Source of the DNA: Microbispora sp. H13382
GTDB taxonomy: Bacteria; Actinomycetota; Actinomycetes; Streptosporangiales; Streptosporangiaceae
Length of the DNA: 64,000 nt
Assembly (NCBI RefSeq): GCF_014161445.1
Contig: NZ_JABBXA010000014.1
Coordinates: 1 to 64,000 of the forward strand
Direction of reading: 5' to 3'
The notes below the pieces were generated by a model. It worked only from the letters and a program-made list of their open reading frames with translations. It had not been told where the DNA came from and made no database searches. Below are positions 5,078-63,357 of this stretch, piece after piece. A program made the position numbers and the translations under genes. How positions within the stretch are numbered: the stretch's first letter is position 1; the number at the start of each line of letters is the position of its first letter.

Positions 5078-5105
5078 CCCCGCGGGGCCGCGACGGTAGG
5101 GGACA

Positions 5106-5981
5106 ATGGCAGGCGTGACGACCGGCCAGGAGATCGACCAGGGGAGCGAGGAGAGCGCGCCGAGCGGCTTCCAGGTGCACCTGGACGTCTTCGAGGGGCC
5201 GTTCGACCTGCTGCTCGGGCTGATCTCCAAGCACAAGCTGGACATCACCGAGGTGTCCCTGCACAAGGTCACCGACGAGTTCATCGCGTACATCCGGTCG
5301 CGGGGGCCGGAGTGGGACCTCGACCAGACCAGCCACTTCCTGCTCGTCGCGGCGACCCTGCTCGACCTCAAGGCGGCGCGGCTGCTGCCCACCGGAGAGG
5401 TGGAGGACGAGGAGGACCTCGCCCTGCTGGAGGCCCGCGACCTGCTGTTCGCGCGGCTGCTGCAGTATCGGGCGTACAAGGAGGTCGCGAAGATCTTCGC
5501 CGGCCGGATGGCCGAGGAGGCGCTGCGCTTCCCGCGCGCCGTGCCGATGGAGAAGCGCTTCGCCGACCTGCTGCCGGAACTCGTGCTCGGCATCGGGCCA
5601 GAACAGCTCGCCAAGATCGCGGCACGGGCCTTCACGCCGAAGGCTCCGCCGTCGGTGTCGGTCTCGCACATCTATCAACCGCTGGCGAGCGTCCGGGAGC
5701 AAGCCGCTATCCTTGTCGAGCGGCTGAGGCGGCTGCACACGGCGACCTTCCGGGCGCTGACCGCCGACTGCGCGGGGACGTTCGAGGTCGTCGCCCGCTT
5801 CCTGGCCGTCCTGGAGCTGTTCCGGGAGGCCGCGGTCTCCTTCGAGCAGGTCGAACCGCTCGGCGACCTGTACGTCACCTGGACGGGCACCGACGACGGC
5901 GATGTCACGGTCGGCGACGACTACGACGAGGGCCGGCGCGAGGAGCGGCCCGCCGAGGCGGACGCGGCACGGGACGAGTGA
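5106..5981 (+). CDS. scpA: segregation and condensation protein ScpA
   Basis: A 291-residue kleisin subunit of the SMC-ScpAB condensin. The N-terminal signature FQVHLDVFEGPFDLLLGLI, then KHKLDITEVSLHKVTDEFI, is diagnostic of ScpA. The C-terminal winged helix, which binds the SMC cap, begins around RLRRLHTATFRALTADC. The tail from about residue 265 is acidic and low-complexity (DDGDVTVGDDYDEG). It follows the ParA-like gene by 28 bp and precedes scpB by about 100 bp, so the three are probably co-transcribed. Confidence 0.95.
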   Translation: MAGVTTGQEIDQGSEESAPSGFQVHLDVFEGPFDLLLGLISKHKLDITEVSLHKVTDEFIAYIRSRGPEWDLDQTSHFLLVAATLLDLKAARLLPTGEVEDEEDLALLEARDLLFARLLQYRAYKEVAKIFAGRMAEEALRFPRAVPMEKRFADLLPELVLGIGPEQLAKIAARAFTPKAPPSVSVSHIYQPLASVREQAAILVERLRRLHTATFRALTADCAGTFEVVARFLAVLELFREAAVSFEQVEPLGDLYVTWTGTDDGDVTVGDDYDEGRREERPAEADAARDE

Positions 5982-39315: not shown

Positions 39316-39463
39316 CCGCGTCCTCCCACGTGAATCGATGATCAGGTCCCCTGTACGGTTCATCGCGCGGGCGGGTGCGGGCGTTGCATGCCCCCGGGGA
39401 TATGGCGTTCGGGGGCGGAGGTGTAGGAGTATCGCAGGGGTGTCCTGACTGTTGGGAGGCGCA

Positions 39464-40237
39464 GTGTCGGTGTTGCGGGATTTGGTGGACGGCATCCGGA
39501 GCGGGGGGATCGAGGTGCTCGACCTCACCGCGCCGCTGAGCGACAAGACACCGATCCTGTTGCTGCCGGAGCCGTTCGGGCAGACGGTGCCGTTCTCGCT
39601 GCAGGAGATCAGCCGGTACGACGACCGCGGCCCGGGCTGGTACTGGAACAACTTCACCACGGGCGAGCACACCGGCACGCACTTCGACGCGCCCGTCCAC
39701 TGGGTGACCGGTCGCGACGGCGAGGACGTGTCGCAGGTGGCCCCCGCCAAGCTGATCGCCCCCGCCGTGGTGCTCGACTTCAGCGCGCAGTCGGCCGCCG
39801 ACCCCGACTTCCTGCTGGAGATCGACCACGTGAAGGCGTGGGAGGCCGAGCACGGGCCGCTGCCGGACGGCGGCTGGCTGCTGTACCGAACCGGCTGGGA
39901 CGTGCGCGCCCACGACCAGGCGGAGTTCCTCAACGCCGACGAGACGGGGCCGCACACGCCCGGCATGTCGCCCGCCTGCGCCCGCTTCCTGGCCGAGGAG
40001 ACGCCGATCGCGGGCATCGGCGTGGAGACCGTGGGCACCGACGCGGGCGCCGCCCACTCCTTCGACCCCGCGTTCCCGTGCCACTCGTACCTGCTCGGCG
40101 CGGGGAAGTACGGCCTGACGCAGCTGCGCAACCTCGACCGGCTGCCGGTGACGGGCGCCGTGGTCGTCGCGGGGCCGCTGCCGATCGTCGGCGGCTCGGG
40201 CAGCCCGGTCCGCGTGCTCGCGCTGGTGGAGCGGTGA
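39464..40237 (+). CDS. cyclase-family metal hydrolase (PF04199 type)
   Basis: A 257-residue member of the cyclase / kynurenine-formamidase-like family. The diagnostic metal motif is GEHTGTHFDAPVHW, the HxGTHxDxPxH pattern, followed by VVLDFSAQSAADPDFLLEID and GAGKYGLTQLRNLDRLPVTG near the end. These enzymes hydrolyse amides or lactones or act as isatin hydrolases with a Zn2+ or Mn2+ ion. GTG 39464 is preceded by GGGAGGC. The stop overlaps the start of the ThDP-enzyme gene (GTGA), so both proteins probably act in one pathway, of unknown substrate. Confidence 0.85.
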   Translation: MSVLRDLVDGIRSGGIEVLDLTAPLSDKTPILLLPEPFGQTVPFSLQEISRYDDRGPGWYWNNFTTGEHTGTHFDAPVHWVTGRDGEDVSQVAPAKLIAPAVVLDFSAQSAADPDFLLEIDHVKAWEAEHGPLPDGGWLLYRTGWDVRAHDQAEFLNADETGPHTPGMSPACARFLAEETPIAGIGVETVGTDAGAAHSFDPAFPCHSYLLGAGKYGLTQLRNLDRLPVTGAVVVAGPLPIVGGSGSPVRVLALVER

Positions 40238-41976
40238 ACGTCGCGGAGGCCGTCGGCGCGGCCCTCGCCGCTCTCGGCGTACGGGCGGCCTTCGGCGTCG
40301 TCGGCAGCGGCAACTTCCACGTCACCAACGCCCTCGTCGAGCACGGCGTGCGGTACGTCGCGGCGCGGCACGAGGGCGGGGCCGCCACGATGGCCGACGC
40401 CTACGCCCGGATGAGCGGCACGGTCGCCGTGCTCACCGTCCACCAGGGACCCGGCCTGACCAACGCGCTGACCGGCGTCACCGAGGCGGCCAAGAGCCGC
40501 ACCCCGCTGCTGGTGCTCGCCCCGGAGGTGACCTCGCCCACCTCCAACTTCCGCGTCGACCAGGCCGCGCTCGCCGAGGCCGTGGGCGCGCACTGCGCCC
40601 GGGTCGGGTCGGCGGAGACGGTCGTGGACGACACCGTGATGGCCTTCCTCGCCGCCCTGCTCGGGCGCCGGACCGTGGTGCTCAACCTGCCTCTGGACGT
40701 GCAGGCCGAGACGCTGCCGGAGGAGGCGGCCGAGGCCGTGCGCGAACTGCTGGCCGGACGCGGGCACCGCGACGTGGCGAGCCGCGTGCCGGCGGCGTGG
40801 GGGCTGACGTTCCCCGTCGATTCCGGGGACGACGAGGAGCCGGAGGGGCTTCCGGCGGAGCCGTCCGACGCGTTGACGCGGTTCGCGCGGCTGCTGGCGG
40901 AGGCGGAGCGCCCGGTCTTCGTGGCCGGCCGGGGAGCCCGGGGCGCGCGGCGGGAACTGGAGGCGCTCGGCGAGCGGGTGGGGGCGCTGTTCGCCACATC
41001 GGCCGTCGCCAAGGGCAACTTCCACGGCAGTCCCTGGGACCTCGACGTGAGCGGCGGGTTCGCCACCCCGCTCGCGGCCGAACTGATCCGCGATGCCGAC
41101 CTCGTCGTCGGCTGGGGCTGCTCGTTCACCATGTGGACCACCCGGCACGGCGCGCTGATCGGGCCGGAGACCAGGGTGGTCCAGGTGGACCTCGACCCCG
41201 ACGCGCTCGGCGTGCACCGCGAGATCGACCTCGGCGTGGTCGGCGACGTACGCGAGACCGCGCGGGCGGTCGCCGCCCTGCTCGGCGACGGCGGGGCCGA
41301 CGGCGAGGCGGGCACGCGTGGATACCGCGCCCCGGAGATCGCCGGGCGCATCGCCCGCGAGGGGCGCTGGCGGGACGTGCCGTACGAGGACCTGAGCGCC
41401 GGGGGACGCATCGACCCCCGCACGCTGACCATCGGGCTCGACGACCTGCTCCCGCAGGAGCGGCTGGTCGCCGTGGACTCCGGGAACTTCATGGGATATC
41501 CGTCGATGTTCCTCACGGTCCCGGACGGCGGCGCGTTCTGCTTCACCCAGGCGTTCCAGTCGATCGGGCTGGGCCTGGCCACCGCGATCGGCGCGGCCGT
41601 CGCGCGGCCCGACCGGCTGGCGGTCGCCGCGCTCGGCGACGGCGGGGCCCTGATGGGCGTCGCCGAGCTGGAGACGGTCGTACGGCTCGGCCTGCCCATG
41701 GTGGTCGTGGTCTACGACGACGACGGGTACGGCGCGGAGGTCCACCACTTCGGCCCCGGCGGGTTCCCGCTCGGCACGGTCACCTTCCCGCCGGCCGACA
41801 TCGCGGCGATCGCCCGGGGCTTCGGCTTCGAGGCGGTGACCGTACGGGGGGAGGAGGACCTGTCCGGCGTCGCCGAATGGCTGAAGGGGCCGCGCGACAA
41901 ACCCCTGCTCGTCCACGCGAAGGTCACCGCCGACCGCCCGTCGTGGTGGCTGGAGGAGGCGTTCCGCGGCCACTGA
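40234..41976 (+). CDS. thiamine-diphosphate-dependent enzyme, acetolactate-synthase-like
   Basis: A 580-residue ThDP enzyme with the three-domain layout of the family. The PYR domain holds the catalytic Glu47 (VAARHEGGAATMADAYARMS) and VLTVHQGPGLTNALTGVTEA. The middle domain follows from about residue 190. The PP domain carries the ThDP/Mg2+ motif starting GDGGALMGVAELETVVRLG; the usual Asn pair at its end is replaced by Asp (VVYDDDGYG). Reactions in the family include decarboxylation and carboligation of 2-oxoacids and C-C hydrolysis. Absence of a regulatory subunit and the coupled cyclase gene argue against branched-chain amino-acid synthesis. Confidence 0.85.
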   Translation: MNVAEAVGAALAALGVRAAFGVVGSGNFHVTNALVEHGVRYVAARHEGGAATMADAYARMSGTVAVLTVHQGPGLTNALTGVTEAAKSRTPLLVLAPEVTSPTSNFRVDQAALAEAVGAHCARVGSAETVVDDTVMAFLAALLGRRTVVLNLPLDVQAETLPEEAAEAVRELLAGRGHRDVASRVPAAWGLTFPVDSGDDEEPEGLPAEPSDALTRFARLLAEAERPVFVAGRGARGARRELEALGERVGALFATSAVAKGNFHGSPWDLDVSGGFATPLAAELIRDADLVVGWGCSFTMWTTRHGALIGPETRVVQVDLDPDALGVHREIDLGVVGDVRETARAVAALLGDGGADGEAGTRGYRAPEIAGRIAREGRWRDVPYEDLSAGGRIDPRTLTIGLDDLLPQERLVAVDSGNFMGYPSMFLTVPDGGAFCFTQAFQSIGLGLATAIGAAVARPDRLAVAALGDGGALMGVAELETVVRLGLPMVVVVYDDDGYGAEVHHFGPGGFPLGTVTFPPADIAAIARGFGFEAVTVRGEEDLSGVAEWLKGPRDKPLLVHAKVTADRPSWWLEEAFRGH

Positions 41977-42064: not shown

Positions 42065-42542
42065 TTCCGGTGGTCCTCGGTAGTGCGATCGTCACGGCGG
42101 CCGGGGCGCGTTCGCCTGCTGGTCAGGCAGTGGTCAGTTCTCACCAAACAGGCGCCGGTGACGTATGTGCCCAGGCTGACTCGGGTACGACGCCCAAAGC
42201 GGACGAAAGGGATCATATTGACCCCGGGCCGTCCCGACGCCCTCGCGACGGGGGCTGACCACATCGCCGGGAAAGGCGCCGGCGGGCGAGTTCCCGATCG
42301 CGGCTCGACCTCCTGCCTCGCGGCTTCGGAGTCGGCCCGCGACCGCGTCCCGCCGGAGCGGGCGCGCCCGCGCCGAGGGTCCGCCGTCGGCCCGGAGCCG
42401 CCGGGGGATCGCACCCTGACCGGCGGCACATCCGGCCGCCTGCGGACCGCGTGAGCCGCGTGGTGAACGCCCGTCCGCACGAGATCTCCCCGCCGGGCCG
42501 GGGACGACGAGGGCGGGCCGAGCAGAGAGAAAGGTAGCCGAA
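42065..42542. promoter_or_regulatory. non-coding leader region upstream of the lanthipeptide precursor
   Basis: About 480 bp with no convincing gene. GC content falls between about 42125 and 42220, where the promoter is most likely; I cannot fix its -35 and -10 boxes. Immediately before the precursor there is a purine-rich AGAGAGAAAGG ribosome-binding site. Confidence 0.4.
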
Positions 42543-42806
42543 ATGTCTTCGAGCGCAGAACAGACCTTCGTCATGCGCGCCGGCCAGGCCGCGCCGATCG
42601 CCGACGAGACCTCGGTGCGTGACCTCTGGTCGCGGATCAGCGTCTCGCTGGAGCGGGACCACGCGCTCCGTGCCCGTTTCGCGACGGACCCCATGGGGGT
42701 CCTGTCGGAGCATGGCCTCGGCCGGGACCTCCAGGAGGAGCCGTTCGACGACAGGGGCGGCAGCGTGACCAAGAGGCCGTGCACGTATCGCCGCTGTCCG
42801 GACTGA
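42543..42806 (+). CDS. lanA: lanthipeptide precursor peptide
   Basis: An 87-residue peptide encoded 25 bp upstream of a lanthipeptide synthetase. Residues 1-71 form an acidic, helical leader whose central part (SVRDLWSRISVSLERDHALR, then ARFATDPMGVLSEHGL) resembles nitrile-hydratase-like leader peptides. A Gly72-Gly73 pair follows. The remaining SVTKRPCTYRRCPD is basic and contains one Ser, two Thr and the only two Cys of the protein, Cys80 and Cys85. Thr76-Cys80 and Thr81-Cys85 have the same Thr-x3-Cys spacing, so two small methyllanthionine rings are predicted. The ring pattern and the cleavage site are inference. Confidence 0.82.
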   Translation: MSSSAEQTFVMRAGQAAPIADETSVRDLWSRISVSLERDHALRARFATDPMGVLSEHGLGRDLQEEPFDDRGGSVTKRPCTYRRCPD

Positions 42807-42831
42807 CGAAAGGCGCGGCGAGAGGTCGCTG

Positions 42832-45441
42832 ATGGAAAGGTCATCGTCTGCCGAGCGGTTCCACGCTCGGTATGCGCTGGCTCTCGAGGCGTTCGTCGCC
42901 GGCCTGCCGCAGGAGTGGTCGACCGGTGTTCACCGGGACGGCCCGGTCTCCTGGCGGGTGTGCGAGCCTCCCGGGGAGTTGCCGGCCCAGGGGTGGAAGC
43001 TCCATGTCTCCGCTTCGGCGGCGGACGCCCTCGACCTGCTGGACGTCGTGCTTCCCGCGCTGGTGGAGGCAGGTGCGGCCTTTAAGCTGCCGGACGACGT
43101 GCGGTCGATCCTCCGGATCAACGCAGGGCTCGCCGGCCGCTCCCAGGTGGGGAAGATCGTCACGGTCTATCCCTCCTCCGATGCCGCGCTGGCCGCCCTG
43201 ATCGACCGCCTCGACGCGGTGTGGCGCCCCGGCCAGGCCCCCGCCGTACCGTCCGACCTGCCGGTCGGGCCGGTCAGCGAGGCCCTGTTCATCCGGTACG
43301 GAGAGTTCACCCCCGTGGGAGAGGTGGTCGACTCCACCGGTGTCCGCCGTCCTGCCCTCCGCGCGCCGGACGGAAGCCTGCGCCCGGACGTGCGCGACAT
43401 CCGGGGCCGCCAGCCGGAGTGGGCTGTGCCGCCCGTGCGGCCGGCGGATCGCCCCGTGAACCCCGGGTTCGACGGCCCGATCGAGATCGACGGTGCCACC
43501 TACCTTCCGCTGAAGCTGCTGGGGGAGGACGCCCGCGGATTCGTGGCCCTGGGCGTGCGGCCCGCCGATCAGCGGCTCGTGGTCATCCGGCACCGGCGGC
43601 GCGGGGTCGAGGGCGACGAGTTCGGCGAGGACGTGGTGACCAGGCTGGAGCCTGAGAGACGGGTGCTGGAGCATCTGAGCGGTTCCGGTCTCGCCCCCGA
43701 GCCGCTGGCACACGACGCCTCGGCCGGATATCTCGTCGTCTCGGACGTGGGAGGGGGCCGGCTGGAACGCCTTCCCGTGGAGGAACGTCTCGACCTCATG
43801 CCGGAACTCGCCGCGGCCGTCGCCCGGTTGCACGCCCGGGGCATCGTGCACCGGGATCTGAAACTTCCCAACGTGCGGGTCGGGCCGGACGGCCTGCGCC
43901 TGGTCGACTTCGAACTGGCGGCGCCGATCGGGACGCGGCACCCCGTGCCGTGCCTCACCGACGGGCACACGCCCCCGGAAGGGCCCTTCGCGGCGGTGGA
44001 ACCGGCGTACGACGTCTACGGGCTCGGCTCCTGCCTGGCCCACGCCGTCCTGGGGTGCTGCCCAGGCGAACTGCCGGAGCGAGGCAACGCCGGCCGCCAG
44101 GCCGGTCTGCTCCTGCGGCACGGGCAGCCGACGGCCGCCGCCATCGTGCGAGAGTGTCATCATCCCGATCCAGGACGGCGGCCGGCCGCCGCGCAGGTGG
44201 CCGAGCGGCTGAGGGCGGCGCTGCCCGCCATGCGGGACGAGCGCGCGGCCGGCCCCTCGGCGTACCGGGGCGAGCTCGACGTGCGCTGGGCACGCGGCGC
44301 GGCGATGAGCGCCGGGACGGCGGCCCGCCGGTTCAGGCCCCACGGCCGGCATAACGCCCACGACCTGCCCGGGGACGGAGACGAAGGGCTGAACCTGGGC
44401 GCGGCCGGCATCGTCGTCGCGCTGGCGACGCTGGACACCGCCCTGGGGACCCGGCGGTTCACCCACGACATCACGGGCGCGGCCACGTGGCTCGCCGAGC
44501 GTCCGCCGTCCCCCGCGCACGGCCTTTTCACCGGCGACAGCGGGGTGGCGGTGGCACTGGCCGTGGCAGGCGGACGGCTGGGGCGGGCGGACCTGGTCGC
44601 CGGGGCGCGGCGGCGCTTCGAACACGCGGCGGCCAGCCGCGTTCCCGACTACGACCTGTTCTCCGGGGCGGCGGGGATCGTGTGGGCGGGCTGCCTGCTC
44701 GACGCGGTCCTGGACGCCACCTGGGCGCGCGACCTGGCCGGACGGCAGGCCGGAAGGATCGTCGAAGCCGCCCGGCACATCGACGGCCTCGTCGCATGGC
44801 CGTCCGACCCGGACCTCGAACCGTCCGGCAACGTGTTCCTCGGGGCCGCCCACGGGACGGCGGGTGTGGCGATGGCCCTCGGGATCTGGGGCGGCTCCAC
44901 CGGCGACGCGACCGCGGTGGCGCTCGCCGAGGACGCCTTCCGCGGCGTCGCGACCCACGGGCTGACCGGCGACGGGACCAACATCCTGTCCACGACGACC
45001 GGGGAGAGCCGCCGGGCGCAGCACTGGTGCCACGGAATGGCGGGCTTCCTCTGGTGCCTGCTGCAGGCGAACGCGGGGGACGACGGGGTCCGGGAAGCGG
45101 CGGTCGCGGCGTTCGACCGTGCCACGCCGCTCCTGGACGGCCCGACCATGTGCCACGGGCTGTCGGGCGTGCTGGAGACGTGGCGGATGCTCCAGGCCCT
45201 GCCGGGGCACCGCGCACGCGCACGCCGCCGCGTCGCCCAGGTCGCCGACAGCCTCCGGCCTCTGCACCACTCTCAGGACGGCGTCACGGTGTGGTCGTCC
45301 GAGAGCTCTTCGGTTGTCGCCCCCGGCCTGTGGCTGGGTTTCCTGGGCCCGGCGACCCAGCTCGCGCTCGCTGCCGCCGGATCGGCCGATCCGCTGCTGT
45401 CCGCCCGATGGTTGCGGCGCTGCGCCCGGCCCGTGCGATGA
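42832..45441 (+). CDS. lanL: class IV lanthipeptide synthetase (LanL type)
   Basis: An 869-residue three-domain enzyme. The N-terminal lyase domain (about 1-210) shows QGWKLHVSASA (Lys56, His58), FKLPDDV (Lys85) and EALFIRYGEF. The kinase domain (about 215-470) has VHRDLKLPN (Asp342, Asn347) and VDFELA (Asp359); the Lys expected in the ATP-anchoring strand reads Arg253 in VVIRHRRRG. The cyclase domain (about 515-869) keeps zinc ligands Cys733 in HWCHGMAG and Cys774/His775 in MCHGLSG, which separates it from class III LanKC enzymes. It would phosphorylate and eliminate Ser/Thr of the precursor and cyclise onto Cys. No transporter or protease gene adjoins. Confidence 0.9.
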   Translation: MERSSSAERFHARYALALEAFVAGLPQEWSTGVHRDGPVSWRVCEPPGELPAQGWKLHVSASAADALDLLDVVLPALVEAGAAFKLPDDVRSILRINAGLAGRSQVGKIVTVYPSSDAALAALIDRLDAVWRPGQAPAVPSDLPVGPVSEALFIRYGEFTPVGEVVDSTGVRRPALRAPDGSLRPDVRDIRGRQPEWAVPPVRPADRPVNPGFDGPIEIDGATYLPLKLLGEDARGFVALGVRPADQRLVVIRHRRRGVEGDEFGEDVVTRLEPERRVLEHLSGSGLAPEPLAHDASAGYLVVSDVGGGRLERLPVEERLDLMPELAAAVARLHARGIVHRDLKLPNVRVGPDGLRLVDFELAAPIGTRHPVPCLTDGHTPPEGPFAAVEPAYDVYGLGSCLAHAVLGCCPGELPERGNAGRQAGLLLRHGQPTAAAIVRECHHPDPGRRPAAAQVAERLRAALPAMRDERAAGPSAYRGELDVRWARGAAMSAGTAARRFRPHGRHNAHDLPGDGDEGLNLGAAGIVVALATLDTALGTRRFTHDITGAATWLAERPPSPAHGLFTGDSGVAVALAVAGGRLGRADLVAGARRRFEHAAASRVPDYDLFSGAAGIVWAGCLLDAVLDATWARDLAGRQAGRIVEAARHIDGLVAWPSDPDLEPSGNVFLGAAHGTAGVAMALGIWGGSTGDATAVALAEDAFRGVATHGLTGDGTNILSTTTGESRRAQHWCHGMAGFLWCLLQANAGDDGVREAAVAAFDRATPLLDGPTMCHGLSGVLETWRMLQALPGHRARARRRVAQVADSLRPLHHSQDGVTVWSSESSSVVAPGLWLGFLGPATQLALAAAGSADPLLSARWLRRCARPVR

Positions 45442-45494: not shown

Positions 45495-46232
45495 ATGGCT
45501 GAGATCGTGTACCCGCCGGTCCTGAGGGCCGCGCTGACCGCCTTCAAACTGCTCGACCTGAGGTTCCACATGGAGGGCACGGAGCGGATACCCCGCAGCG
45601 GCGGCGCGGTCCTGGTGAGCAACCACGTCAGCTACCTCGACTTCATCTTCGCCGGTTTCGCCGCCCACCCCGCGCGGCGGCTGGTCCGCTTCATGGCGAA
45701 GAAGGAGGTCTTCGGCCACCCCGTGTCGGGCCCGCTGATGCGCGGCATGCACCACATCCCGGTGGACCGGTCGGCCGGGGCGGGAGCCTACGACGTCGCC
45801 GTACGGGCCCTCAAGGACGGCGAGATCGTGGGCAACTTCGCCGAGGCGACGATCAGCAGGTCGTTCACGGTCAAGGAGATCAAGAACGGCCCGATCCGGA
45901 TGGCGGCCGAGGCCGGGGTGCCCGTGATCCCGGTCGCCCTGTGGGGCGGCCAGCGGCTGTGGACCAAGGGCCGCCCCCGCAAGCTGCTCCAGCGGCACGT
46001 CCCGATCACGATCCTGGTCGGCGAGCCCATGCACCCGATGCCGGACGACGACATCGCCGCGCTCACCGACGACCTGCGCCGGCGGATGGCGGACCTGCTC
46101 GACGAGGCCCAGCGGACCTACCCCGACCAGGCGCGGGGCGTGTGGTGGCAGCCCGCCCACCTCGGCGGCACGGCGCCCACCCCCGAGGAGGCCGCCGCCC
46201 TCGACGCCGCCGCCCGGCCGCGCCGCTCCTGA
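45495..46232 (+). CDS. lysophospholipid acyltransferase (PlsC-like)
   Basis: A 245-residue acyltransferase. The HX4D catalytic motif is in LVSNHVSYLDFIFAGFA. The acceptor-binding FPEGT block reads GNFAEATISRSF, a variant of the usual motif. It should acylate 1-acylglycerol-3-phosphate or a related lysolipid at the membrane. It starts 53 bp after the lanthipeptide synthetase on the same strand, but a role in peptide maturation (for example lipidation) is only speculation; ordinary phospholipid metabolism is the simplest reading. The C-terminus is Ala/Pro-rich and probably disordered. Confidence 0.88.
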   Translation: MAEIVYPPVLRAALTAFKLLDLRFHMEGTERIPRSGGAVLVSNHVSYLDFIFAGFAAHPARRLVRFMAKKEVFGHPVSGPLMRGMHHIPVDRSAGAGAYDVAVRALKDGEIVGNFAEATISRSFTVKEIKNGPIRMAAEAGVPVIPVALWGGQRLWTKGRPRKLLQRHVPITILVGEPMHPMPDDDIAALTDDLRRRMADLLDEAQRTYPDQARGVWWQPAHLGGTAPTPEEAAALDAAARPRRS

Positions 46233-46910
46233 CAGGGGCCCCGGGCCTGACCTGGACGAGGCGCGACCGGTGCTCGGACGCACTTGGGAAAATCTGTGCC
46301 CTCGTCACGCCGGCCGGATCACGGCGCCCATATGGGGGCGACCGGGAGTCCCTTCCGCCATCACCCTGGCCGGCCTGCCTGTGCTAGACGGCAAACTCTA
46401 GGTCCAGAATGGACCCCAGGAGTATCCACTCGCCCTGTACTCCGTTGTACCAAGCGCGGGGATGCACCTCGATGAATGTTGCTAGGCTGTAGCATCACCC
46501 GGCGGATTCCGGCTTGTATAGTGAATCGACGACGCCGATCCGTACGGCATTTCACGAGATCCGTCTGAGACGATATGCGCCGTGACGATCAAGCGGTCCC
46601 ACATGCCGAAATGCCTCCTGATGCCGCGGTTGAAATCACGCGGATACGTCAACCGATGCGGTTTTGGTCACTCCTGATATCTCGCTGCGGTCAACCCATC
46701 CGAGAAGCGATATCGGGAGGGGGACGGAAGATGAGCGGTCTCTCGTGTGGTACCCGGGGTGACCTTCCTCGCGCCGGCCGTCCTTTCCGGGGGCGGCCAT
46801 GGGAAGCGGCTCCGATATGCAACACGGCCGTTACGCAGGAGGCTTGACCACGGGTCAGGGGACGGGGATAACTGACCCGGGGGCCCGCAATCCGTAGGTT
46901 GGAGCCGTGG
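46233..46910. other. 678-bp region without a recognised gene
   Basis: The region is lower in GC than its flanks between about 46380 and 46700, so it probably holds promoters for the LAL regulator downstream. A 90-codon frame (46575-46847) has no recognisable motif. Within it an ATG at 46731, behind a strong GGGAGGGGG site, would give a 38-residue peptide starting MSGLSCGTRGDLPRAG. I cannot say whether it is expressed. Confidence 0.4.
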
Positions 46911-49835
46911 ATGAGCATCGTGCCCTCGCCCCCGCTGGTCGGACGCGCCGCTGAGCTGCGGACCCTCATCGACGCGGTGACCCGGCCGCCTGCGGTCGTG
47001 CTGGTGGAGGGCGAGGCGGGCATCGGCAAGACCCGGCTCGTCCGCGCCGCGCTCGACCGGCTGCCGTCCGGCGACCGGGCCGTCCTGCTCGGCTACTGCC
47101 ACCAGATCCGCGAGCCGTTCCCGTACGGGCCGGTCTTCGAGGCGCTGCGGGACATCAGGGGACGGCTCCCGGCGGCGCACCGGCTCAACCCGGTCACCGG
47201 TGCGCTCCGCGGCCACCTCCCCGAGCTGGCCGGCGCGCTGCCGCCGCCGCCCCAGCCCCTGGACGACCCGAGGGCCGAGCGCCACCGGGTTTTCCGCGCG
47301 ATACGCGCCCTGCTGGCGGCCGTCGGACCGGCCGTACTCGTCGTCGAGGACCTGCACTGGGCCGACGACGGCACGCTCGACTTGCTGCGCTTCCTGGCCG
47401 GTCAGCCGCCGCGGGGGCTGGCGGTGGTCGCGACCTGCCGGCGGGACGGCACGGCCGGGCCGCCGCTCGGCAGGGCCTACCGGCACCAGCCGGACACGGC
47501 CAACGTGGTCGTACGGCTGGCGCCGCTGGACGTGCCGGGTGTGGCCAGCCTGGCCGGCGCGCTGCTGGAGCGGTCAGACCTGGCTCCCGGGTTCGTCGCG
47601 CGGCTGCACGAGCGCACGGCGGGCATCCCGTTCGTGGTGGAGGAGCTGGTCCGATCGCTGCCCGCCGGTCTGCCCGGCGCCGGCGATCCTGACTCGCTCG
47701 ACCGTGCCGTCGACCGCGCCGGCGTCCCGCTGCTGCTGCGCGAGGCGATGGCCGAGCGGATGGCGGGGCTGTCCCCGGCGGCGGCGAGCGCGGTCCGGGC
47801 GGCGGCGGTGCTACGGCTGCCCGCGGACGAGGAGATGATCACCGCGGTCGCCGGAAACTCCGCCGGGCTGAGCACTCTTGGGCCGGGCTCCGCCGGCCTG
47901 GGCACCCTCGGGCCGGGCTCCGCCGGGCTGGGCACCCTTGGGCCGGGCTCCGCCGGCTTGGCCGAGGCGCTGCGCGCCGGGGTCCTGCACGAGCACCCCG
48001 GCGGCCGGTACGGCTTCCGCCACGCGCTGGCCCAGCAGGCCGTCTACGACGCCGTCCCTGGTCCGGAACGCCGGTCGGCGCACGTCAGGGCCATGGCCGC
48101 GCTCGCCGCCACGGACGCGCCGCCGCTCGTGCAGCTGGCCTTCCACGCCCGGCGGGCCGGGGACACCGGCGCCTGGGTGCGCCACGGGACCGCCGCCGCC
48201 AAGCAGGCCGCCGCGCTGGGCGACACCGCCCTGGCCGTCGAGGTGATCGAGGGCATGCTCGACGATCCCGATCTCCCGGCCACCGGGCGCGGCCCGCTGG
48301 TGCTGATGCTGAGCCGCCTGGCGGCGACGGGCCTGTCGCACCAGCGGGTGGTGCGGCTGCTGCGCCAGGTGCTGCGGGGCGACTTCCTCTCCCGGGACGT
48401 GCGCGGCGAGGTGCGGCTCAACCTTGGCGTCGTCCTGTCCAACCAGGCGGGCGACGCCGCCGCGGGGCGTCCGGAGATCCTGGCCGCCCTGGCCGAGCTG
48501 AGTGACCGGCCGACGCTGGCCGCCCGCGGCTGGGCCAGCATCGCGATGCCGGAATGGGGCACCGAGTCGCTGGCGGAGCACGCGGAGTGGATGGCCCGCG
48601 CCGAGGCGCTCGTCGCCACCGCCGACAACCCGGAGCTGTCGGCCGCGGTCCTGGCCAACCGGGCCTCCTTCGAGATGACGACCGGTTCTCCCGGCGCGTT
48701 CGACGTCGCCGCCCGGCTTCCGGCCGCCGATCCGCGTTCGGCCGTCCGGCGGGAGGTCGCCCGGGCGTACTGCAACCTCCACGACTCGGCGACCACCGTG
48801 GGGCTCTACGCGGCGGCCGAGCGGTTCGCCCGGGAAGGCCGGCGGCTCGCCCTGGAGACCGGCGCGCAGTATCCCGCCTTCCTCCTCGACGCCTCCGTGA
48901 TCCGCAGGGAGTGGCTCACCGGACGGTGGGACGGGCTCCGTGACCGGGCGGCGTCCCTGGGGGAGTCGGCGACGGAGACGCCGCTGATCGCGGTGGACCT
49001 CTGGCTGGTGCTCGGATTGCTGGCCCTGGCGAGGGGCGAATGGGAGGAGGCGGTCAGGCAGCTCCACCGCGCCGGGCTGGACGCCCCGGACGCCCGCAAC
49101 GTCCCGGTCGTGACGGCAGCCGCCGGGGGGCTCGTCGACCTGCATCTCGCCCGCGGGACGGCGGACGAGGCGGCCGCGGAGGCCGGGCGGGCGGTCGCCC
49201 GGCTGCGCCGCAAGGGCGTGTGGGTGTGGGGGGCGAGCCTGGTCCCGTCCGCCGTCGCCGCGTTCGCCCGGGCCGGGCGGACGGGGATGGCGGCCGATCT
49301 GGTGGACGAGTACGCCGCCGGGATCGCGGACCGGGTGGCGCCCGCGGCGCACGCCGCGCTCGACGCCGCCCGGGGCGTGCTCGCCGCCGCCGAACTGCGG
49401 CACGCCGACGCCGCCGCCTGCTTCGCCCGGGCCCGCGAGGCGTACGCCGCGCTGCCCCAGCCGTACGCGGCGGCGCGGGCGGCCGAGGGCGAGGCGCGGG
49501 CCGGGCTCGCGCGGGGGGACGTAGCCGCGGCGGCGGGTTTCCGGGAGGCCGCCCAGTGGTACGGCCGGCTCGGCGCCACCCACGACGCCGCCCGGTGCCG
49601 GCGGGCCCTGCGCGACATCGGGGTGGACGTCCCGCTGCCGCGCGGCGGGCGGCGGGGCGCCGGCGCGCTGTCGCAGCGGGAGCGGGAGGTGGCCCGGCTC
49701 GTCGCGCTCGGCCGGACCAACCGCGAGATCGCCGACGTGCTCTTCCTGTCCACGCGCACGGTCGAGACCCACGTCGCCACCGTGCTGCGCAAGCTCGGCG
49801 TACGGTCGCGGACCCAGATCGCGCCGCCCTCCTGA
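46911..49835 (+). CDS. LAL-type (MalT-like) LuxR regulator
   Basis: A 974-residue large ATP-binding regulator. The N-terminal AAA/NACHT-like ATPase has Walker A VEGEAGIGKTRLVRAAL and Walker B LVVEDLHWADD. The middle 500 residues are Ala-rich helical repeats of TPR type. The C-terminus is a LuxR helix-turn-helix, LSQREREVARLVALGRTNRE, then FLSTRTVETHVATVLRKLGV. Between ATPase and TPR region sits an in-frame 30-bp repeat. LAL proteins usually activate secondary-metabolite or sugar-use genes; no target is evident here. ATG 46911 (MSIVPSPPLVGRAAEL) is preferred over TTG 46899. Confidence 0.93.
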   Translation: MSIVPSPPLVGRAAELRTLIDAVTRPPAVVLVEGEAGIGKTRLVRAALDRLPSGDRAVLLGYCHQIREPFPYGPVFEALRDIRGRLPAAHRLNPVTGALRGHLPELAGALPPPPQPLDDPRAERHRVFRAIRALLAAVGPAVLVVEDLHWADDGTLDLLRFLAGQPPRGLAVVATCRRDGTAGPPLGRAYRHQPDTANVVVRLAPLDVPGVASLAGALLERSDLAPGFVARLHERTAGIPFVVEELVRSLPAGLPGAGDPDSLDRAVDRAGVPLLLREAMAERMAGLSPAAASAVRAAAVLRLPADEEMITAVAGNSAGLSTLGPGSAGLGTLGPGSAGLGTLGPGSAGLAEALRAGVLHEHPGGRYGFRHALAQQAVYDAVPGPERRSAHVRAMAALAATDAPPLVQLAFHARRAGDTGAWVRHGTAAAKQAAALGDTALAVEVIEGMLDDPDLPATGRGPLVLMLSRLAATGLSHQRVVRLLRQVLRGDFLSRDVRGEVRLNLGVVLSNQAGDAAAGRPEILAALAELSDRPTLAARGWASIAMPEWGTESLAEHAEWMARAEALVATADNPELSAAVLANRASFEMTTGSPGAFDVAARLPAADPRSAVRREVARAYCNLHDSATTVGLYAAAERFAREGRRLALETGAQYPAFLLDASVIRREWLTGRWDGLRDRAASLGESATETPLIAVDLWLVLGLLALARGEWEEAVRQLHRAGLDAPDARNVPVVTAAAGGLVDLHLARGTADEAAAEAGRAVARLRRKGVWVWGASLVPSAVAAFARAGRTGMAADLVDEYAAGIADRVAPAAHAALDAARGVLAAAELRHADAAACFARAREAYAALPQPYAAARAAEGEARAGLARGDVAAAAGFREAAQWYGRLGATHDAARCRRALRDIGVDVPLPRGGRRGAGALSQREREVARLVALGRTNREIADVLFLSTRTVETHVATVLRKLGVRSRTQIAPPS
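47856..47958 (+). repeat. 30-bp in-frame tandem repeat in the LAL gene
   Basis: About 3.5 units of a 30-bp sequence encode the decapeptide GPGSAGLGTL. Units at 47881-47910 and 47911-47940 differ at few positions. The repeat lies at the end of the ATPase module just before LAEALRAGVLHEHPG and probably forms a flexible linker. Confidence 0.9.
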
Positions 49836-49895: not shown

Positions 49896-52121
49896 TCAGA
49901 GCGTGATGCTCCAGGAGTCGAGGTAGCCGGTGTCGTAGGTGTACTGGTCACGGACCTCCAGGGTCCAGGTGCCCGCCGCCGTCTGGGTGACCGGGACGGA
50001 GTAGGTGCGGGTGCCGAAGGAGGCGCAGCTCCCGCCGCTGGACTTGACCGTGTAGTAGGTGCCGTTCGGGCCCTGGAGCCTGATCCGCAGGTCACCGGCG
50101 CAGGTGTGCGAGATCGTGATGCTCAGCTGCACCGGGGAGATCGCCGTGCCCGTGGCGGTCGAGGTGATCGGGCTGTTGATCGTGCTCAGGTCGTTGATCG
50201 TGTAGTCGGTGCCGTTGGTGAACGTGCGCGTGCCGGAGGTGCCCGACACGGTCAGCGTGTACGCCGCGGTGTGGGCGCCCGACGATCCGCTGCCGGTGAC
50301 GGTGACGGTGTAGGTGCCCGCGGGTGTCGACGCGCTGGTGGCGATGGTCAGGGTGGAGGAGCCGCCCGAGCTCACCGACGACGGGCTGAAGCTCGCGGTG
50401 GCGCCGGAGGGAAGCCCGGAGGCGCTGAGGCTCACCGTCTGCGCGCTGCCCGAGGTCGTGGCCGTCGCGACGGTGGTGGTGGCGGAACCGCCCGGCGTCA
50501 CCGTGCCCGCGGTGGGACTGAGCGACAGCGAGAAGTCGCTGCTCGATGAGCTGCAGCTCGCCTCGCCCGACTGCGCCGGCACGCCGGCCGCGCTCCACGC
50601 CGCCTTGGTGGCCGCGCACTCGGCGCTGCTCGCGCCGTACAGCTCGACCGCCGCCGCCAGCGACGCGGTCCTGACGTTGACGTACTTCCAGGTCGAGGTC
50701 TTGCGCATCAGCGCGCCCATGTAGATCTTGCCGGCCTTCTGGATGCCGATGCCGGTCACCGAGGAGGGGCCGCCGGAGCAGATCGGGCTGTTCGGCTTGC
50801 CGCCGCCCGGCGACGAGCCCTCGGCGAGCAGGTAGAACCAGTGGTTCAGCGGACCGGCCGCGGAGTGCACCTCGGTGCTCGGAATCGAGCTCGAGTAGCA
50901 GTTGGGGTCGCCGGCGAGGGACGGGTTGTACATGTAGCGGATCGGCCCGTCACCGACGAGGTTGACCTCCTCGCCCACCTGGTAGTCCGGCGGGTCGTTC
51001 GGGTTGTTGGCGTACGCCTCGGTGAGCGCGCCGAAGATGTCGCCGGTGGCCTCGTTCAGGCCGCCGTTCTCGTTGCCCGAGCCGGCGTTCCCCGGGGTCG
51101 TCTGGAAGATGGCGTGGCCGAACTCGTGCGCCACGACGTCGATCGGCGTGGCCTGGCGGGCGTTGTCCTGGGAGTGGCCGAAGTTGGTGTAGCTGCCGTT
51201 CCAGTACGCGTTGACCTGGTTCAGGCCAACCCGGGCGGGGAAGCCGCCGCCGTTGCCGTTGATGCCGTTGCGGCCGAGCCAGTCGCGCAGCATGTCCCAC
51301 TCGCGCTGCACGGCGTAGAGCGCGTCCACGCAGGCCGTCTCCAGGTTGGTCCCGCCGCCGTTGCCCCAGGAGTCGTCGGTGCCGGTGTAGGCCGAGCCGT
51401 TCTGCCCGCCGCACCGGATGCCGCTGCGGGTGGAGTCGGTCATCGAGTACGACGTGCCGGAGCCGCTGGTGTTGATGGTGACCGTGCCGTAGTAGTAGCC
51501 GTTGCCGGTGCCGGCCCTCACCTGGTCGTAGGAGTCGGCGATCTCACCGGTCGTCGCGTCGACGAAGACGTGCTGGATGCTCGGCTTGCCGTCGGCGATG
51601 CCGGAGACCACCGCCTCCCACGCCAGGCGGGGCTGGGCGCCCCACGCCAGGACCACCAGGCGCGGGGCGGCGCTGTCGTCGACGCGGGACAGCACGGTCT
51701 TCGCCGTCGCGGTGGCGGTCTCGGCGGTGACCGCCGGCGAGGTCGGCACGCCCAGGGGGAGGGCGCCGGAGGCCGCCTCGGAGTCGCGCACCCGCCCATT
51801 GGCGTCGGTGACCACGACCGCGTCGCCGCCCACGATGGGCAGGCCCTTGTACGCGCGCTCGTAGGTGACGTAGTACATGCCGGCACCCGCCGTCACGGCG
51901 GTGCGCCGGTAGGTCTCGTTGGGGGACATGCGCAGGTCGTCCAGGCCGCTCGCGACGGCCTGGTCGGCCGCGGCCGCGGCCCGCTGTGCCGGATCGTCGG
52001 CGAGGGACCTCACCGCGACCTCGCTGCCGGGCGGGGGCTTCGCGGCGGCGGCTGTGGGGGGTGCCACGACGCCGGTCACGGCCAGCGCGGCGGTCGCCGC
52101 GAGCAGTGCTGTGCGCCTCAT
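49896..52121 (-). CDS. secreted M4 (thermolysin-like) metallopeptidase with Ig-like and P-domains
   Basis: A 741-residue exported protease. The signal peptide is MRRTALLAATAALAVTGVVA; an FTP/PepSY propeptide follows (TVLSRVDDSAAPRLVVLAWG, VFVDATTGEIADSYDQV). The catalytic domain has the zinc motif VVAHEFGHAIFQT and the third ligand Glu in GGLNEATGDIFGAL, and the C-terminal M4 lobe includes STEVHSAAGPLNHWFYLLAE. Next come an Ig-like module (FSLSLSPTAGTVTPGGSATT) and a terminal P-domain (NDLSTINSPITSTATGTA to TGYLDSWSITL). ATG 52121 follows GAAAGGAAGAC. The P-domain probably stabilises the protease or anchors it to substrate. Confidence 0.93.
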   Translation of the reverse strand: MRRTALLAATAALAVTGVVAPPTAAAAKPPPGSEVAVRSLADDPAQRAAAAADQAVASGLDDLRMSPNETYRRTAVTAGAGMYYVTYERAYKGLPIVGGDAVVVTDANGRVRDSEAASGALPLGVPTSPAVTAETATATAKTVLSRVDDSAAPRLVVLAWGAQPRLAWEAVVSGIADGKPSIQHVFVDATTGEIADSYDQVRAGTGNGYYYGTVTINTSGSGTSYSMTDSTRSGIRCGGQNGSAYTGTDDSWGNGGGTNLETACVDALYAVQREWDMLRDWLGRNGINGNGGGFPARVGLNQVNAYWNGSYTNFGHSQDNARQATPIDVVAHEFGHAIFQTTPGNAGSGNENGGLNEATGDIFGALTEAYANNPNDPPDYQVGEEVNLVGDGPIRYMYNPSLAGDPNCYSSSIPSTEVHSAAGPLNHWFYLLAEGSSPGGGKPNSPICSGGPSSVTGIGIQKAGKIYMGALMRKTSTWKYVNVRTASLAAAVELYGASSAECAATKAAWSAAGVPAQSGEASCSSSSSDFSLSLSPTAGTVTPGGSATTTVATATTSGSAQTVSLSASGLPSGATASFSPSSVSSGGSSTLTIATSASTPAGTYTVTVTGSGSSGAHTAAYTLTVSGTSGTRTFTNGTDYTINDLSTINSPITSTATGTAISPVQLSITISHTCAGDLRIRLQGPNGTYYTVKSSGGSCASFGTRTYSVPVTQTAAGTWTLEVRDQYTYDTGYLDSWSITL

Positions 52122-52523
52122 GGGCGTCTTCCTTTCTCTGCCTCCCACGCGGCGTCCCGCCTTGTGGGCGGGCACCGGCGGTCGCGCGGCCGGGAGACGA
52201 GCCCGGGCGGCGGACACCGTGGGAAGTGGGGGGTGATGAGAGAAATGGAGGGGGATGTCCGCTGTGCGGGGCACGAGCGGGCACGTCTCTCCCATGGCGG
52301 AATAAAAGGCTGGGAGAAAGAGAGGGGTTCTACGTCACGGGGCTCCTCGCTTCGCCGACCCGCCGGGGAAACCGGCTCGTGCGCGACGTTAGAACCATGG
52401 TCGGGACGCGAACATCCGTAGCGATATCCGTACATCTACGGAAAAGCGACTGCCATGGTGCGTAGGGCGTAAGAAGCGGCCGGCGAGGCGGAGAGCCGGG
52501 GGAGGGGCACTAGGTTCGAGGGC
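52122..52523. promoter_or_regulatory. divergent intergenic region with TCCGTA repeats
   Basis: About 400 bp between the divergent metallopeptidase and PPOX genes. The hexamer TCCGTA occurs at 52415-52420 and 52427-52432 in direct orientation, 12 bp apart, and inverted as TACGGA at 52437-52442. This looks like a multi-half-site operator. No gene is seen in the gap. Confidence 0.5.
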
Positions 52524-61227: not shown

Positions 61228-63357
61228 ATGGCGTGGGCAGCCCGCGCGGGCGCTGTCGTCATGGGTGCGGTGTCCGCGGTGCTCGTGGCCGCGGCGCTGC
61301 TGATCCTCGCGGGGCTCCCGGCGGAGTGGCGGGTGCCGGGGACGGTCTCGCCGCTGATGCCGGCGGGGGTGACCTTCCCGGCGGTCGGCGCGTTCCTCAT
61401 CGCGTACCGGCCCCGGCTCACGCTGGCGTGGCTGATGTGCGCGGGCGGGCTCGCCGCCGCCGTCCACGACTTCTGCCAGATGGCGATGCTGGCGTCGATG
61501 GCGCGCGGGGACCTCGCGCTCGCGGAGTTCCTGAGGTTTCCGGCGCAGGTCGGCTGGGCGGTGGGCGGGATCACACTGGAGACGCTGCTGCCGCTGTACT
61601 CCCCGGACGGCAGGCTGCCCTCGCGGCGCTGGCGGGCGGTGGTGCTGCTCGGTGTGGCGTCCGTCGGGACCGAGACGGCGCGCCAGTTCGTGCGGCCGGA
61701 TCCGCCCCTCGAGGGCTATCCGCTCCCCGCGGTCGTCCACAATCCGCTGCAGATCCCGGCCCTGGCGCCGTACATGCCGGCGATCGGGACGCTGGCCTGG
61801 ACGGCGATCACCGTGTCGCTGGCTCTGGCGGCGCTGTCACTGCTGTCGCGCTTCCGCCGGGCGGACCCGGCGGGCAGGCGGCAGATCGGCTGGCCGCTGT
61901 TCGCGTTCGCCGGATACGTCGTGTTCTCGCTCGTGGGCGTGGCCGCGCCCGAGCTGGTCTGGCTGTCGATCGTCTGGGCGGCGCTCGTCCCCGTCGCGAT
62001 CGTGTTCTCGGTGACCCGCTACCGGTTGTACGGCATCGACACCGTCGTCAGCCGGACCTTCGTCGCCGCGGGGCTGCTGGCCGTGGTCGGCGGGGTCTAC
62101 TTCGGTGTGGCCGCGCTGTCGAGCCTGGTCGTGTCCGGCTACGACCAGGTCGCCGGGCTCGCCGCCGCCCTGCTCACGGGCGCGTTCTTCCAGCCGCTGC
62201 GCCGGATGCTGCAACGTGCCGTCGACCGCCTGTTCTACGGCCCGGTGGGCGACCCGCGGGTGCTGGCCGAGCGGCTGGTCCAGGAGGTGCGCCGGGGCGA
62301 TCCGGCGCAGGCGCTGGAGCCGGTGATCGGTGTGCTCCGGGAAGGCCTGGCGGTGCAGGGCGTCGCGGTGGAGGTGACCGGCGGTGAGCCGGGGCTCGGC
62401 GCCGGGGTGGTCAGCACGGTCAGCGGGCAGGTCGGCGACTCCCCGCGCGAGGTGCCGCTGGTCTGGCACGGCGAGCGGGTGGGGCGGCTGCTGGTCGGCC
62501 CGCCCGCCCCACGCCGCTTCCCCGCCGCGCACGACGAGCGGGTGCTGGCCACGCTGGTCCCGTACGCGGCCGACGTGGCGCACGCGGTGCGCCTGGCGGC
62601 CGACCTGCAGCGCTCCCGGGAGCGCATCCTGACCGCCCGGGAGGAGGAACGGCGGCGGCTGCGCCGCGACCTGCACGACGGCCTGGGCCGGACGCTCGGG
62701 GAGATGGCCATGGCCGTCACCATGGCCCGCGCCAGCCTGAAGAGCTCCCCGGAGACGGCGGACAGGCTGCTGCGCGAGTTGCGCTCCGGCATGGACACGG
62801 TCACGCACGACGTCCGGCAGCTCGTGTACGGCCTGCGCCCGCCCGCCTTGGACGACCTGGGCCTGGCCGCCGCCCTGCGAGCGCTGGCCGGGCGGGACGA
62901 TCCCGAAGGCCCGGCCGCTGAGGTGCGCGCCGAGGGCGACCTGGCCGACCTGCCCGCCGCCGTCGAGGTGGCCGTCTACCGGATCGCGCAGGAGGCGCTG
63001 ACCAACGTCCGGCGCCACGCGCGTGCCACCCGGGTCCGGGTGGAGCTGCGCCGCGAACCCGCGGCGCTGCGCCTGCTGGTCGCCGACGACGGCGTGGGCC
63101 TGCCGCCGGAACGCCGCACGGGTCTCGGCCTGACCTCCATGCGCGAGCGCACGGCGGAGCTGGGCGGGATCTGCCTCATCACCGGCGAGCCGGGGGCGGG
63201 CACCACGGTCGAGGTCACGCTCCCTGCGCCTGCCAACGGAGCACCTGCTAACGGAGCGCCGGCGGACGGAGCGCCGCCGGCACGGCGCCACCCTGCCGGT
63301 CCGCCCGGAGAGGCCGCCGGGATGTCCGGCGGGGCGGCCGATTTCGTGGTCTCCTGA
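61228..63357 (+). CDS. orphan NarL-type sensor histidine kinase
   Basis: A 709-residue membrane kinase. Eight or so hydrophobic segments fill residues 1-310 (VVMGAVSAVLVAAALLILAG, LAVVGGVYFGVAALSSLVVS). A cytoplasmic GAF-like region follows. The HisKA_3 box is RRLRRDLHDGLGRTLGEMAM with the acceptor His, and the ATPase domain contains VADDGVGLPPERRTGLGLTS. The last 45 residues are Ala/Pro-rich with a NGAPANGAPADGAP microrepeat. No response regulator adjoins within the window, so it is an orphan here; the partner may lie beyond the right edge. Confidence 0.9.
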   Translation: MAWAARAGAVVMGAVSAVLVAAALLILAGLPAEWRVPGTVSPLMPAGVTFPAVGAFLIAYRPRLTLAWLMCAGGLAAAVHDFCQMAMLASMARGDLALAEFLRFPAQVGWAVGGITLETLLPLYSPDGRLPSRRWRAVVLLGVASVGTETARQFVRPDPPLEGYPLPAVVHNPLQIPALAPYMPAIGTLAWTAITVSLALAALSLLSRFRRADPAGRRQIGWPLFAFAGYVVFSLVGVAAPELVWLSIVWAALVPVAIVFSVTRYRLYGIDTVVSRTFVAAGLLAVVGGVYFGVAALSSLVVSGYDQVAGLAAALLTGAFFQPLRRMLQRAVDRLFYGPVGDPRVLAERLVQEVRRGDPAQALEPVIGVLREGLAVQGVAVEVTGGEPGLGAGVVSTVSGQVGDSPREVPLVWHGERVGRLLVGPPAPRRFPAAHDERVLATLVPYAADVAHAVRLAADLQRSRERILTAREEERRRLRRDLHDGLGRTLGEMAMAVTMARASLKSSPETADRLLRELRSGMDTVTHDVRQLVYGLRPPALDDLGLAAALRALAGRDDPEGPAAEVRAEGDLADLPAAVEVAVYRIAQEALTNVRRHARATRVRVELRREPAALRLLVADDGVGLPPERRTGLGLTSMRERTAELGGICLITGEPGAGTTVEVTLPAPANGAPANGAPADGAPPARRHPAGPPGEAAGMSGGAADFVVS

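What the first reader, a model, noticed from the sequence alone, without database searches (positions are those of the whole stretch)
42543..45441. Orphan class IV lanthipeptide locus with an unusual precursor
A 2.9-kb unit consists of one precursor and one lyase-kinase-cyclase. The cyclase has three zinc ligands (Cys733, Cys774, His775), placing it with LanL. The leader, however, looks like a nitrile-hydratase-like leader (ALRARFATDPMGVLSEHGL), a type I associate with other RiPP classes rather than with class IV. This combination may represent an undescribed subfamily.
Basis: partly seen in the sequence, partly recalled or inferred. Interest (0 to 1): 0.88.

Follow-up and report, generated by a model that had tools for sequence, protein, structure and literature searches.

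The report
Class IV lanthipeptide with hydratase-like leader
A two-gene unit in a soil actinobacterium encodes a small peptide and the enzyme predicted to stitch it into rings, and both belong to a little-noticed branch of such peptide makers that spans several bacterial phyla and uses a type of address tag better known from other peptide families.

Summary
Window 42543-45441, in a Microbispora genome, carries an 87-aa precursor and, 25 bases on, an 869-aa lyase-kinase-LanC enzyme with zinc ligands Cys733, Cys774 and His775. The pair is in 3 of 15 Microbispora genomes, is conserved, and in M. oryzae sits alone at another locus, so it behaves as a two-gene cassette.

The enzyme is LanL-like but divergent (382.7 bits; cut-off 650; two classic LanLs score 1093 and 1211). 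The leader resembles the NHLP clan, below every curated cut-off. The combination is not an orphan: the leader was found in 20 of 80 enzyme loci, all within one enzyme superclade of several phyla, and in 0 of 48 loci outside it; nine further non-duplicate loci agreed.

Most likely product (inferred): two adjacent rings, Thr76-Cys80 and Thr81-Cys85. Two oddities: the kinase beta-3 lysine is arginine in the window's enzyme and its five nearest relatives, and sister-clade cores repeat Cys-x-x-Ser/Thr. No chemistry was tested.

The parts
42530..42534 (+). ribosome-binding site AAAGG of the precursor
   Evidence: read directly from sequence, 8 bases before the ATG
42543..42806 (+). precursor peptide, 87 aa
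   Evidence: ORF; orthologs in two Microbispora species; co-occurs with the enzyme in 3 of 15 genomes
42606..42710 (+). helical part of the leader, residues 22-56, NHLP-clan-like
   Evidence: AlphaFold helices 22-38, 40-48, 50-56; profile alignment to sister-clade leaders E 7.5e-10; weak NCBIfam matches
42756..42761 (+). Gly72-Gly73 before the core, a possible cleavage site
   Evidence: sequence; not kept in M. catharanthi or M. oryzae
42762..42803 (+). proposed core, residues 74-87, with Ser74, Thr76, Cys80, Thr81, Cys85
   Evidence: [ST]xxxC-TxxxC-PD shared by three Microbispora precursors; core limits inferred
42832..45441 (+). class IV-like lanthionine synthetase, 869 aa
   Evidence: AlphaFold pLDDT 90.1; best PDB match CuvL 8cav
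42919..43437 (+). lyase domain (RamC_N, residues 30-202), with Lys56, His58, Lys85, Tyr113
   Evidence: Pfam; columns
43588..43590 (+). Arg253 at the kinase beta-3 lysine position
   Evidence: alignment of 88 enzymes; strand 248-255 in the model
43777..44202 (+). kinase domain, the Pfam-matched part (residues 316-457)
   Evidence: Pfam
44386..45222 (+). LanC-like cyclase domain (residues 519-797)
   Evidence: Pfam
45028..45030 (+). zinc ligand Cys733
45151..45156 (+). zinc ligands Cys774 and His775

Best explanation
A minimal two-gene lanthipeptide locus. The precursor has a helical, NHLP-clan-like leader and a short C-terminal core. Inferred working: the leader docks the peptide on the class IV-like synthetase; the kinase domain phosphorylates Ser/Thr of the core; the OspF-like lyase domain eliminates phosphate to Dha/Dhb; the zinc LanC domain adds Cys80 and Cys85 to them. 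The likeliest product has two adjacent five-residue rings, Thr76-Cys80 and Thr81-Cys85, with Ser74 dehydrated or free. Leader removal and export would rely on genes elsewhere. Shown: genes, conservation, domain order, zinc and most catalytic residues, homology of the leader to that of sister loci, phylogenetic place. Inferred: every chemical step, the rings, and the leader's docking role.
For: Domain order; fold like CuvL over the whole chain, TM 0.79/0.80 to 8cav_B; zinc ligands in 83 of 88 enzymes including this one; lyase Lys56, His58, Tyr113 match VenL Lys51, His53, Tyr108 of PMC2843593 (passages); kinase HRD and Asp359 kept; precursor and enzyme in the same 3 of 15 Microbispora genomes; [ST]xxxC-TxxxC kept in three species; leader homologous to those of sister loci and tied to the enzyme clade.
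Against: The kinase beta-3 lysine is Arg253, which in ordinary kinases usually cripples catalysis (general knowledge). The VenL Arg83 position is not Arg here, nor in the classic LanL L128. Both curated model cut-offs are missed. No leader protease or transporter gene was recognised among the neighbours scanned. The precursor's dN/dS against M. oryzae is a weak 0.65.
Confidence: 0.78

Rival explanations
1. An ordinary LanL system: the leader only looks NHLP-like because it is a short amphipathic helix, and there is no special subfamily.
For: The window precursor's matches to NHLP-clan models are weak and below cut-off; L078, L079 and L080 match no NCBIfam model at E 0.1; the precursor's fold has no significant PDB match.
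Against: Leader alignment to sister-clade precursors E 7.5e-10; leader HMM 20 of 80 loci, 0 of 48 outside the superclade, 0 of 9,074 shuffled ORFs, 4 of 4 v 0 of 5 in further non-duplicate loci; enzyme scores far under classic LanLs.
Confidence: 0.12
2. The enzyme dehydrates but the rings differ: as in sister cores with Cys-x-x-Ser/Thr, Cys adds onto a downstream Dha/Dhb, or the product is only partly cyclised.
For: In 26 sister-clade cores Ser/Thr stands at Cys+3 56 times against 13.7 in shuffles, reached in 0 of 2000; in 7 window-clade cores 9 v 3.2, reached in 1 of 2000.
Against: The three Microbispora cores have no Ser/Thr at Cys+3; they share Ser/Thr at Cys-4 (window clade 8 v 3.1, P 0.007, six of the eight by my count from Microbispora).
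Confidence: 0.15
3. The kinase domain is inactive because of Arg253, and the locus is decaying or makes an unmodified peptide.
For: Arg at the beta-3 lysine in the window and L074-L078.
Against: HRD and Asp359 are kept; all six Arg253 enzymes have Lys228, otherwise seen in 2 of 82 rows; dN/dS below 1 in each comparison that gave a value; no stop or frameshift in the pairs compared.
Confidence: 0.1

Closest known systems
Class IV lanthipeptide synthetases LanL (VenL; NCBIfam NF038150; CuvL, PDB 8car/8cav)
   Same: Lyase, kinase and zinc LanC domains in one chain; lyase Lys, His and Tyr of VenL; best NCBIfam match.
   Different: 382.7 bits against a cut-off of 650, while two classic LanLs score 1093 and 1211; Arg253 instead of the kinase lysine; NHLP-clan-like leader; CuvL has Cys-Cys-Gly where this has Cys-His-Gly.
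Class III synthetases LanKC (ThurKC 8sam/8sao/8sap, NCBIfam NF038151)
   Same: Overall three-domain fold.
   Different: LanKC-type enzymes of the same genome lack the zinc ligands kept here; lower score (270.6 bits).
NHLP-leader precursors (TIGR03793, TIGR04509, TIGR04351, NF038399)
   Same: Helical leader with a conserved D-x3-Lxx[RK]-x4-[DN]P-x3-L-x3-G(L/I/V) run followed by a variable core rich in Cys, Ser and Thr.
   Different: Below every curated cut-off; in passages read such leaders are paired with cyclodehydratases, LanM or a LanM-like hybrid, here with a LanL-like enzyme.

Membership tests
Class IV LanL | N-terminal phosphoSer/Thr lyase, central kinase, C-terminal LanC-like domain | tested here: met
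Class IV LanL | zinc ligands in the LanC domain | tested here: met
   Cys733, Cys774, His775
Class IV LanL | lyase residues Lys51, His53, Arg83, Tyr108 of VenL | tested here: inconclusive
   Lys56, His58, Tyr113 match; Arg not kept, as also in classic L128
Class IV LanL | intact kinase catalytic set | tested here: not met
   HRD and Asp359 kept, beta-3 Lys replaced by Arg253
Class IV LanL | NCBIfam NF038150 curated cut-off, 650 bits | tested here: not met
   382.7 bits
Class IV LanL | dehydration and cyclisation of the cognate peptide | not testable with these tools
   needs co-expression and mass spectrometry
Class III LanKC | LanC-like domain without zinc ligands | tested here: not met
   ligands present; 270.6 bits, cut-off 575
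NHLP leader family TIGR03793 | curated cut-off, 50.9 bits | tested here: not met
   window precursor not listed at E 0.1; 7 of 18 precursors match at E 0.1, best 8.7e-6
NHLP leader clan | homology to the NHLP helical leader | tested here: inconclusive
   weak hits to three related models; E 7.5e-10 to sister leaders, some of which hit NHLP models
NHLP leader clan | leader of about 70-83 aa ending in Gly-Gly (PMC4289311 passages) | tested here: inconclusive
   73 residues up to Gly72-Gly73 in the window; Gly-Gly not kept in the two other Microbispora

The most novel reading that the evidence does not exclude
The locus belongs to a deep, cross-phylum branch of LanL-like enzymes that use NHLP-clan leaders and escape annotation because they miss the LanL cut-off. 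The branch's usual substrate is a tandem Cys-x-x-Ser/Thr core, cyclised from an upstream Cys onto a downstream Dha/Dhb, opposite to the common direction. The window's own subgroup has moved the kinase's ATP-binding lysine (Lys228 for Arg253), and the Microbispora cores have switched to forward Ser/Thr-x-x-x-Cys rings.
Probability: 0.25. Interest if true: 0.78.

Novelty: new variant of a known kind. Interest (0 to 1): 0.6.

Why it matters
If right, class IV-type synthesis is wider than the usual actinobacterial set: a 2025 review places class IV only in Actinobacteria and Firmicutes (PMC12328550, passages), although PMC9576775 reports one product from the deltaproteobacterium Chondromyces (passages). 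One leader type would serve cyclodehydratases, LanM and LanL-like enzymes, so leader exchange between classes becomes testable. The Cys-x-x-Ser/Thr cores predict an unusual ring direction, and the Arg253 kinases ask how ATP is held without the usual lysine. All can be tested with two-gene expression.

Tried and rejected
A genome-contig scan with the single enzyme found no relatives; the alignment scan did. Plasmids gave 5 records, each under half the query at 31.7-33.7% identity; viral contigs none. My first idea that 8car is SgbL was wrong: it is CuvL. The thermolysin-like protease at 49899-52295 was considered as leader peptidase and set aside: other strand, 4.5 kb away, and M. oryzae DNA around its pair does not match that stretch. 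The M36 peptidase of the S. aureus cluster has no match in 15 Microbispora genomes, though that search had no positive control. A comparison with curated NHLP members was not made: TIGR03793 gave no match over cut-off in 148 genomes. The precursor model has no significant PDB match. I recognised no precursor with confidence beside 22 classic LanL loci, so the core statistics lack a class IV control. In one search two window ORFs were given in a poor frame or were doubtful and matched nothing; one was re-run in its right frame (TPP enzyme). L081 shows no precursor; only 619 bases of its locus precede the enzyme. Promoter and terminator scans found nothing.

Full report
WHAT IS THERE. The window is part of contig C6 of an 8.7-Mb genome. 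At 42543-42806 lies an 87-aa ORF with a ribosome-binding site; 25 bases on, at 42832-45441, an 869-aa ORF with RamC_N, Pkinase and LANC_like domains. Neighbours identified by Pfam are a Dak1 protein, a putative cyclase (39452-40237), a thiamine-diphosphate enzyme (39838-41976), an acyltransferase (45495-46232), a LuxR-type regulator (46899-49835) and a thermolysin-like protease on the other strand (49899-52295); several other ORFs scanned matched nothing and some may not be genes. No transporter or other RiPP gene was recognised among those scanned.

CONSERVATION. Precursor and enzyme occur in the same 3 of 15 Microbispora genomes (precursor; enzyme). In 345 genomes of the order the enzyme profile found three orthologs above 1700 bits, all in the genus, and three more genomes at 218-248 bits. 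The precursor profile matched the same three plus G003 at E 5.5e-5 inside a 530-aa frame; the later leader HMM did not report that stretch (L064) at E 0.01. A sample of 394 genomes of the class added one ortholog, G439 at 1286 bits, whose contig length is that of Streptomyces aureus L075; 392 genomes of its genus added no other at that level. M. catharanthi DNA matches the window on both sides of the pair; M. oryzae matches only 42502-45402: a cassette. dN/dS by NG86 / YN00 against M. catharanthi: precursor 0.33 / 0.11, enzyme 0.41 / 0.15; against M. oryzae by NG86 only, 0.65 and 0.39.

ENZYME. 382.7 bits to LanL and 270.6 to LanKC, under both cut-offs. The zinc ligands are present in 83 of 88 aligned enzymes, this one included. 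Lyase Lys56, His58 and Tyr113 align with VenL residues named in PMC2843593 (passages). The AlphaFold model (pLDDT 90.1) matches CuvL best, then LanKC structures. The kinase beta-3 residue is Arg253: Arg in the window and L074-L078, Leu in L054, unreliable in L095 (misread frame), Lys in the other 80 of 88. All six Arg enzymes have Lys at 228, which is Lys in only 2 of the other 82 rows. These six are close kin, so the link may be inherited rather than functional; a moved lysine is a guess.

PHYLOGENY. Of 372 relatives in genome contigs the best 80 were kept. In a 58-row tree the window lies in a nine-member clade (SH-aLRT 100) with three Microbispora in all, S. aureus, Actinacidiphila, Pseudonocardia, Nitrospira defluvii, a deltaproteobacterial and an actinomycete MAG. 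Its sister (92) holds 14 rows from Chloroflexota, Thermomicrobiota, Cyanobacteriota, Alphaproteobacteria and Actinomycetota; Massilia, Legionella and Eisenbacteria join next (98), then Herpetosiphon L101 (97). A 41-row tree gives 100/100 for the nine, 91/82 for their join with the sister clade, 99/99 with the Massilia group and 90/92 with L101: the deep joins are moderate. The place of CuvL next to this superclade is not firmly resolved. Eight superclade members scanned score 324-598 bits to the LanL model; classic L144 and L128 score 1211 and 1093.

LEADER. The window peptide matches IniB_NTERM (E 4.6e-4), TOMM_nitrile_2 (0.0026) and TIGR04509 (0.014), all below cut-off. Of 18 superclade precursors, 9 match NF038399, 8 IniB_NTERM, 7 leader_NHLP (best 8.7e-6), 6 TIGR04509 and 5 TIGR04351 at E 0.1; Pfam Nif11 matches 2; scanned singly, L078, L079 and L080 match none. 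Seven window-clade precursors align with twelve sister-clade ones at E 7.5e-10. The model has three helices at 22-56 and a disordered core. A leader HMM, iterated on 9,074 small ORFs of the 80 loci, settled on 32 ORFs in 20 loci. All 20 are among 32 loci I assign to the superclade (27 on the tree, five by likeness to Massilia or Legionella rows); 0 of the other 48 (22 on that tree, 26 not) have a hit. The HMM was trained on these same loci. The 12 superclade loci without a hit: L079, where a short ORF just upstream scores E 3.2; L081; L101; and nine Massilia, Legionella or Eisenbacteria loci, eight of them listed at E 0.04-1.1 at best. Control: 0 of 9,074 shuffled ORFs. Further test: 12 other loci, three of them duplicates. 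The leader is beside exactly the four that the tree puts in the superclade (L061-L063, L069) and 0 of 8 others; three of the four hits had already been seen, before the tree.

CORES. The three Microbispora cores share [ST]xxxC-TxxxC-PD, suggesting two adjacent five-residue rings. S. aureus and Pseudonocardia keep the leader with quite different Cys/Ser/Thr-rich cores. In 26 sister-clade cores Ser/Thr stands at Cys+3 56 times v 13.7 (0 of 2000 shuffles), also at Cys-1 33 v 14.7, Cys-6 26 v 12.5 and Cys+7 28 v 12.0. ORFs of Massilia and Legionella loci chosen by Cys count, some of them not precursors, show Cys+3 187 v 62.5 and Cys-1 181 v 64.8 (0 of 500). Related sequences inflate these figures. 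A four-residue period fits, but whether Cys adds to a downstream or an upstream residue is open.

ACCESSORY GENES. The S. aureus locus has a FAD-synthetase-like gene between precursor and enzyme and an M36 peptidase after it; Pseudonocardia has similar-looking ORFs, judged by eye. Two Ktedonobacteria loci have an S8 peptidase. The S. aureus M36 protein has no match in 15 Microbispora genomes, so leader removal there is unexplained.

LITERATURE. Ten searches. In passages read, NHLP leaders are paired with cyclodehydratases, LanM or a LanM-like hybrid (PMC2887384; PMC7268733; PMC4289311; PMC10676384); none pairs them with LanL. The passages of PMC9576775 on two class IV products do not give leader type; its supplement was not read. 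Four class IV papers sought are not held. I cannot say the combination is unpublished, only that these searches did not show it.

VERDICT. A genuine two-gene lanthipeptide locus and a new variant of a known kind.

Noticed in passing
L111 5281-5601 and 5824-7278 (cyanobacterium FACHB-502); L138 5902-7377; L149 5863-7305: Three proteins with RamC_N and kinase domains and no LanC-like match: possible dehydratase-only enzymes. Beside the one in L111 is a 106-aa ORF with a Gly-Gly and an almost pure Thr tail, a possible dehydrobutyrine-rich product.
   Followed up: partly
L106, L108, L113, L115, L100, L136, L140, L145, about 4590-5870: Precursors beside LanL-like enzymes in Legionella and Massilia carry two or three near-identical Cys/Ser/Thr-rich blocks built of Cys-x-x-Ser/Thr tetrads: apparent multi-core precursors.
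   Followed up: partly
L135 3155-5646 (Tengunoibacter): Seven precursor ORFs with the same leader and varied cores stand in front of one synthetase.
   Followed up: no
L068 8322-9101 and L078 5225-5986: A FAD-synthetase-like gene sits between precursor and synthetase in Streptomyces aureus (PF06574); a similar-looking ORF is at the same place in Pseudonocardia (by eye). Its role is unknown.
   Followed up: partly
L101 5590-5748 (Herpetosiphonaceae MAG): A 52-aa ORF upstream of the synthetase has a different short leader but three Cys-x-x-Thr tetrads at its end.
   Followed up: no
L079 8654-10464 (Nitrospira defluvii): Two dioxygenase-type genes (PhyH, TauD) follow the synthetase directly.
   Followed up: no
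window 61320-61414 (+): The window's only tRNA call, tRNA-Ile (GAT), lies inside a 709-aa ORF (61228-63357) and may be false.
   Followed up: no
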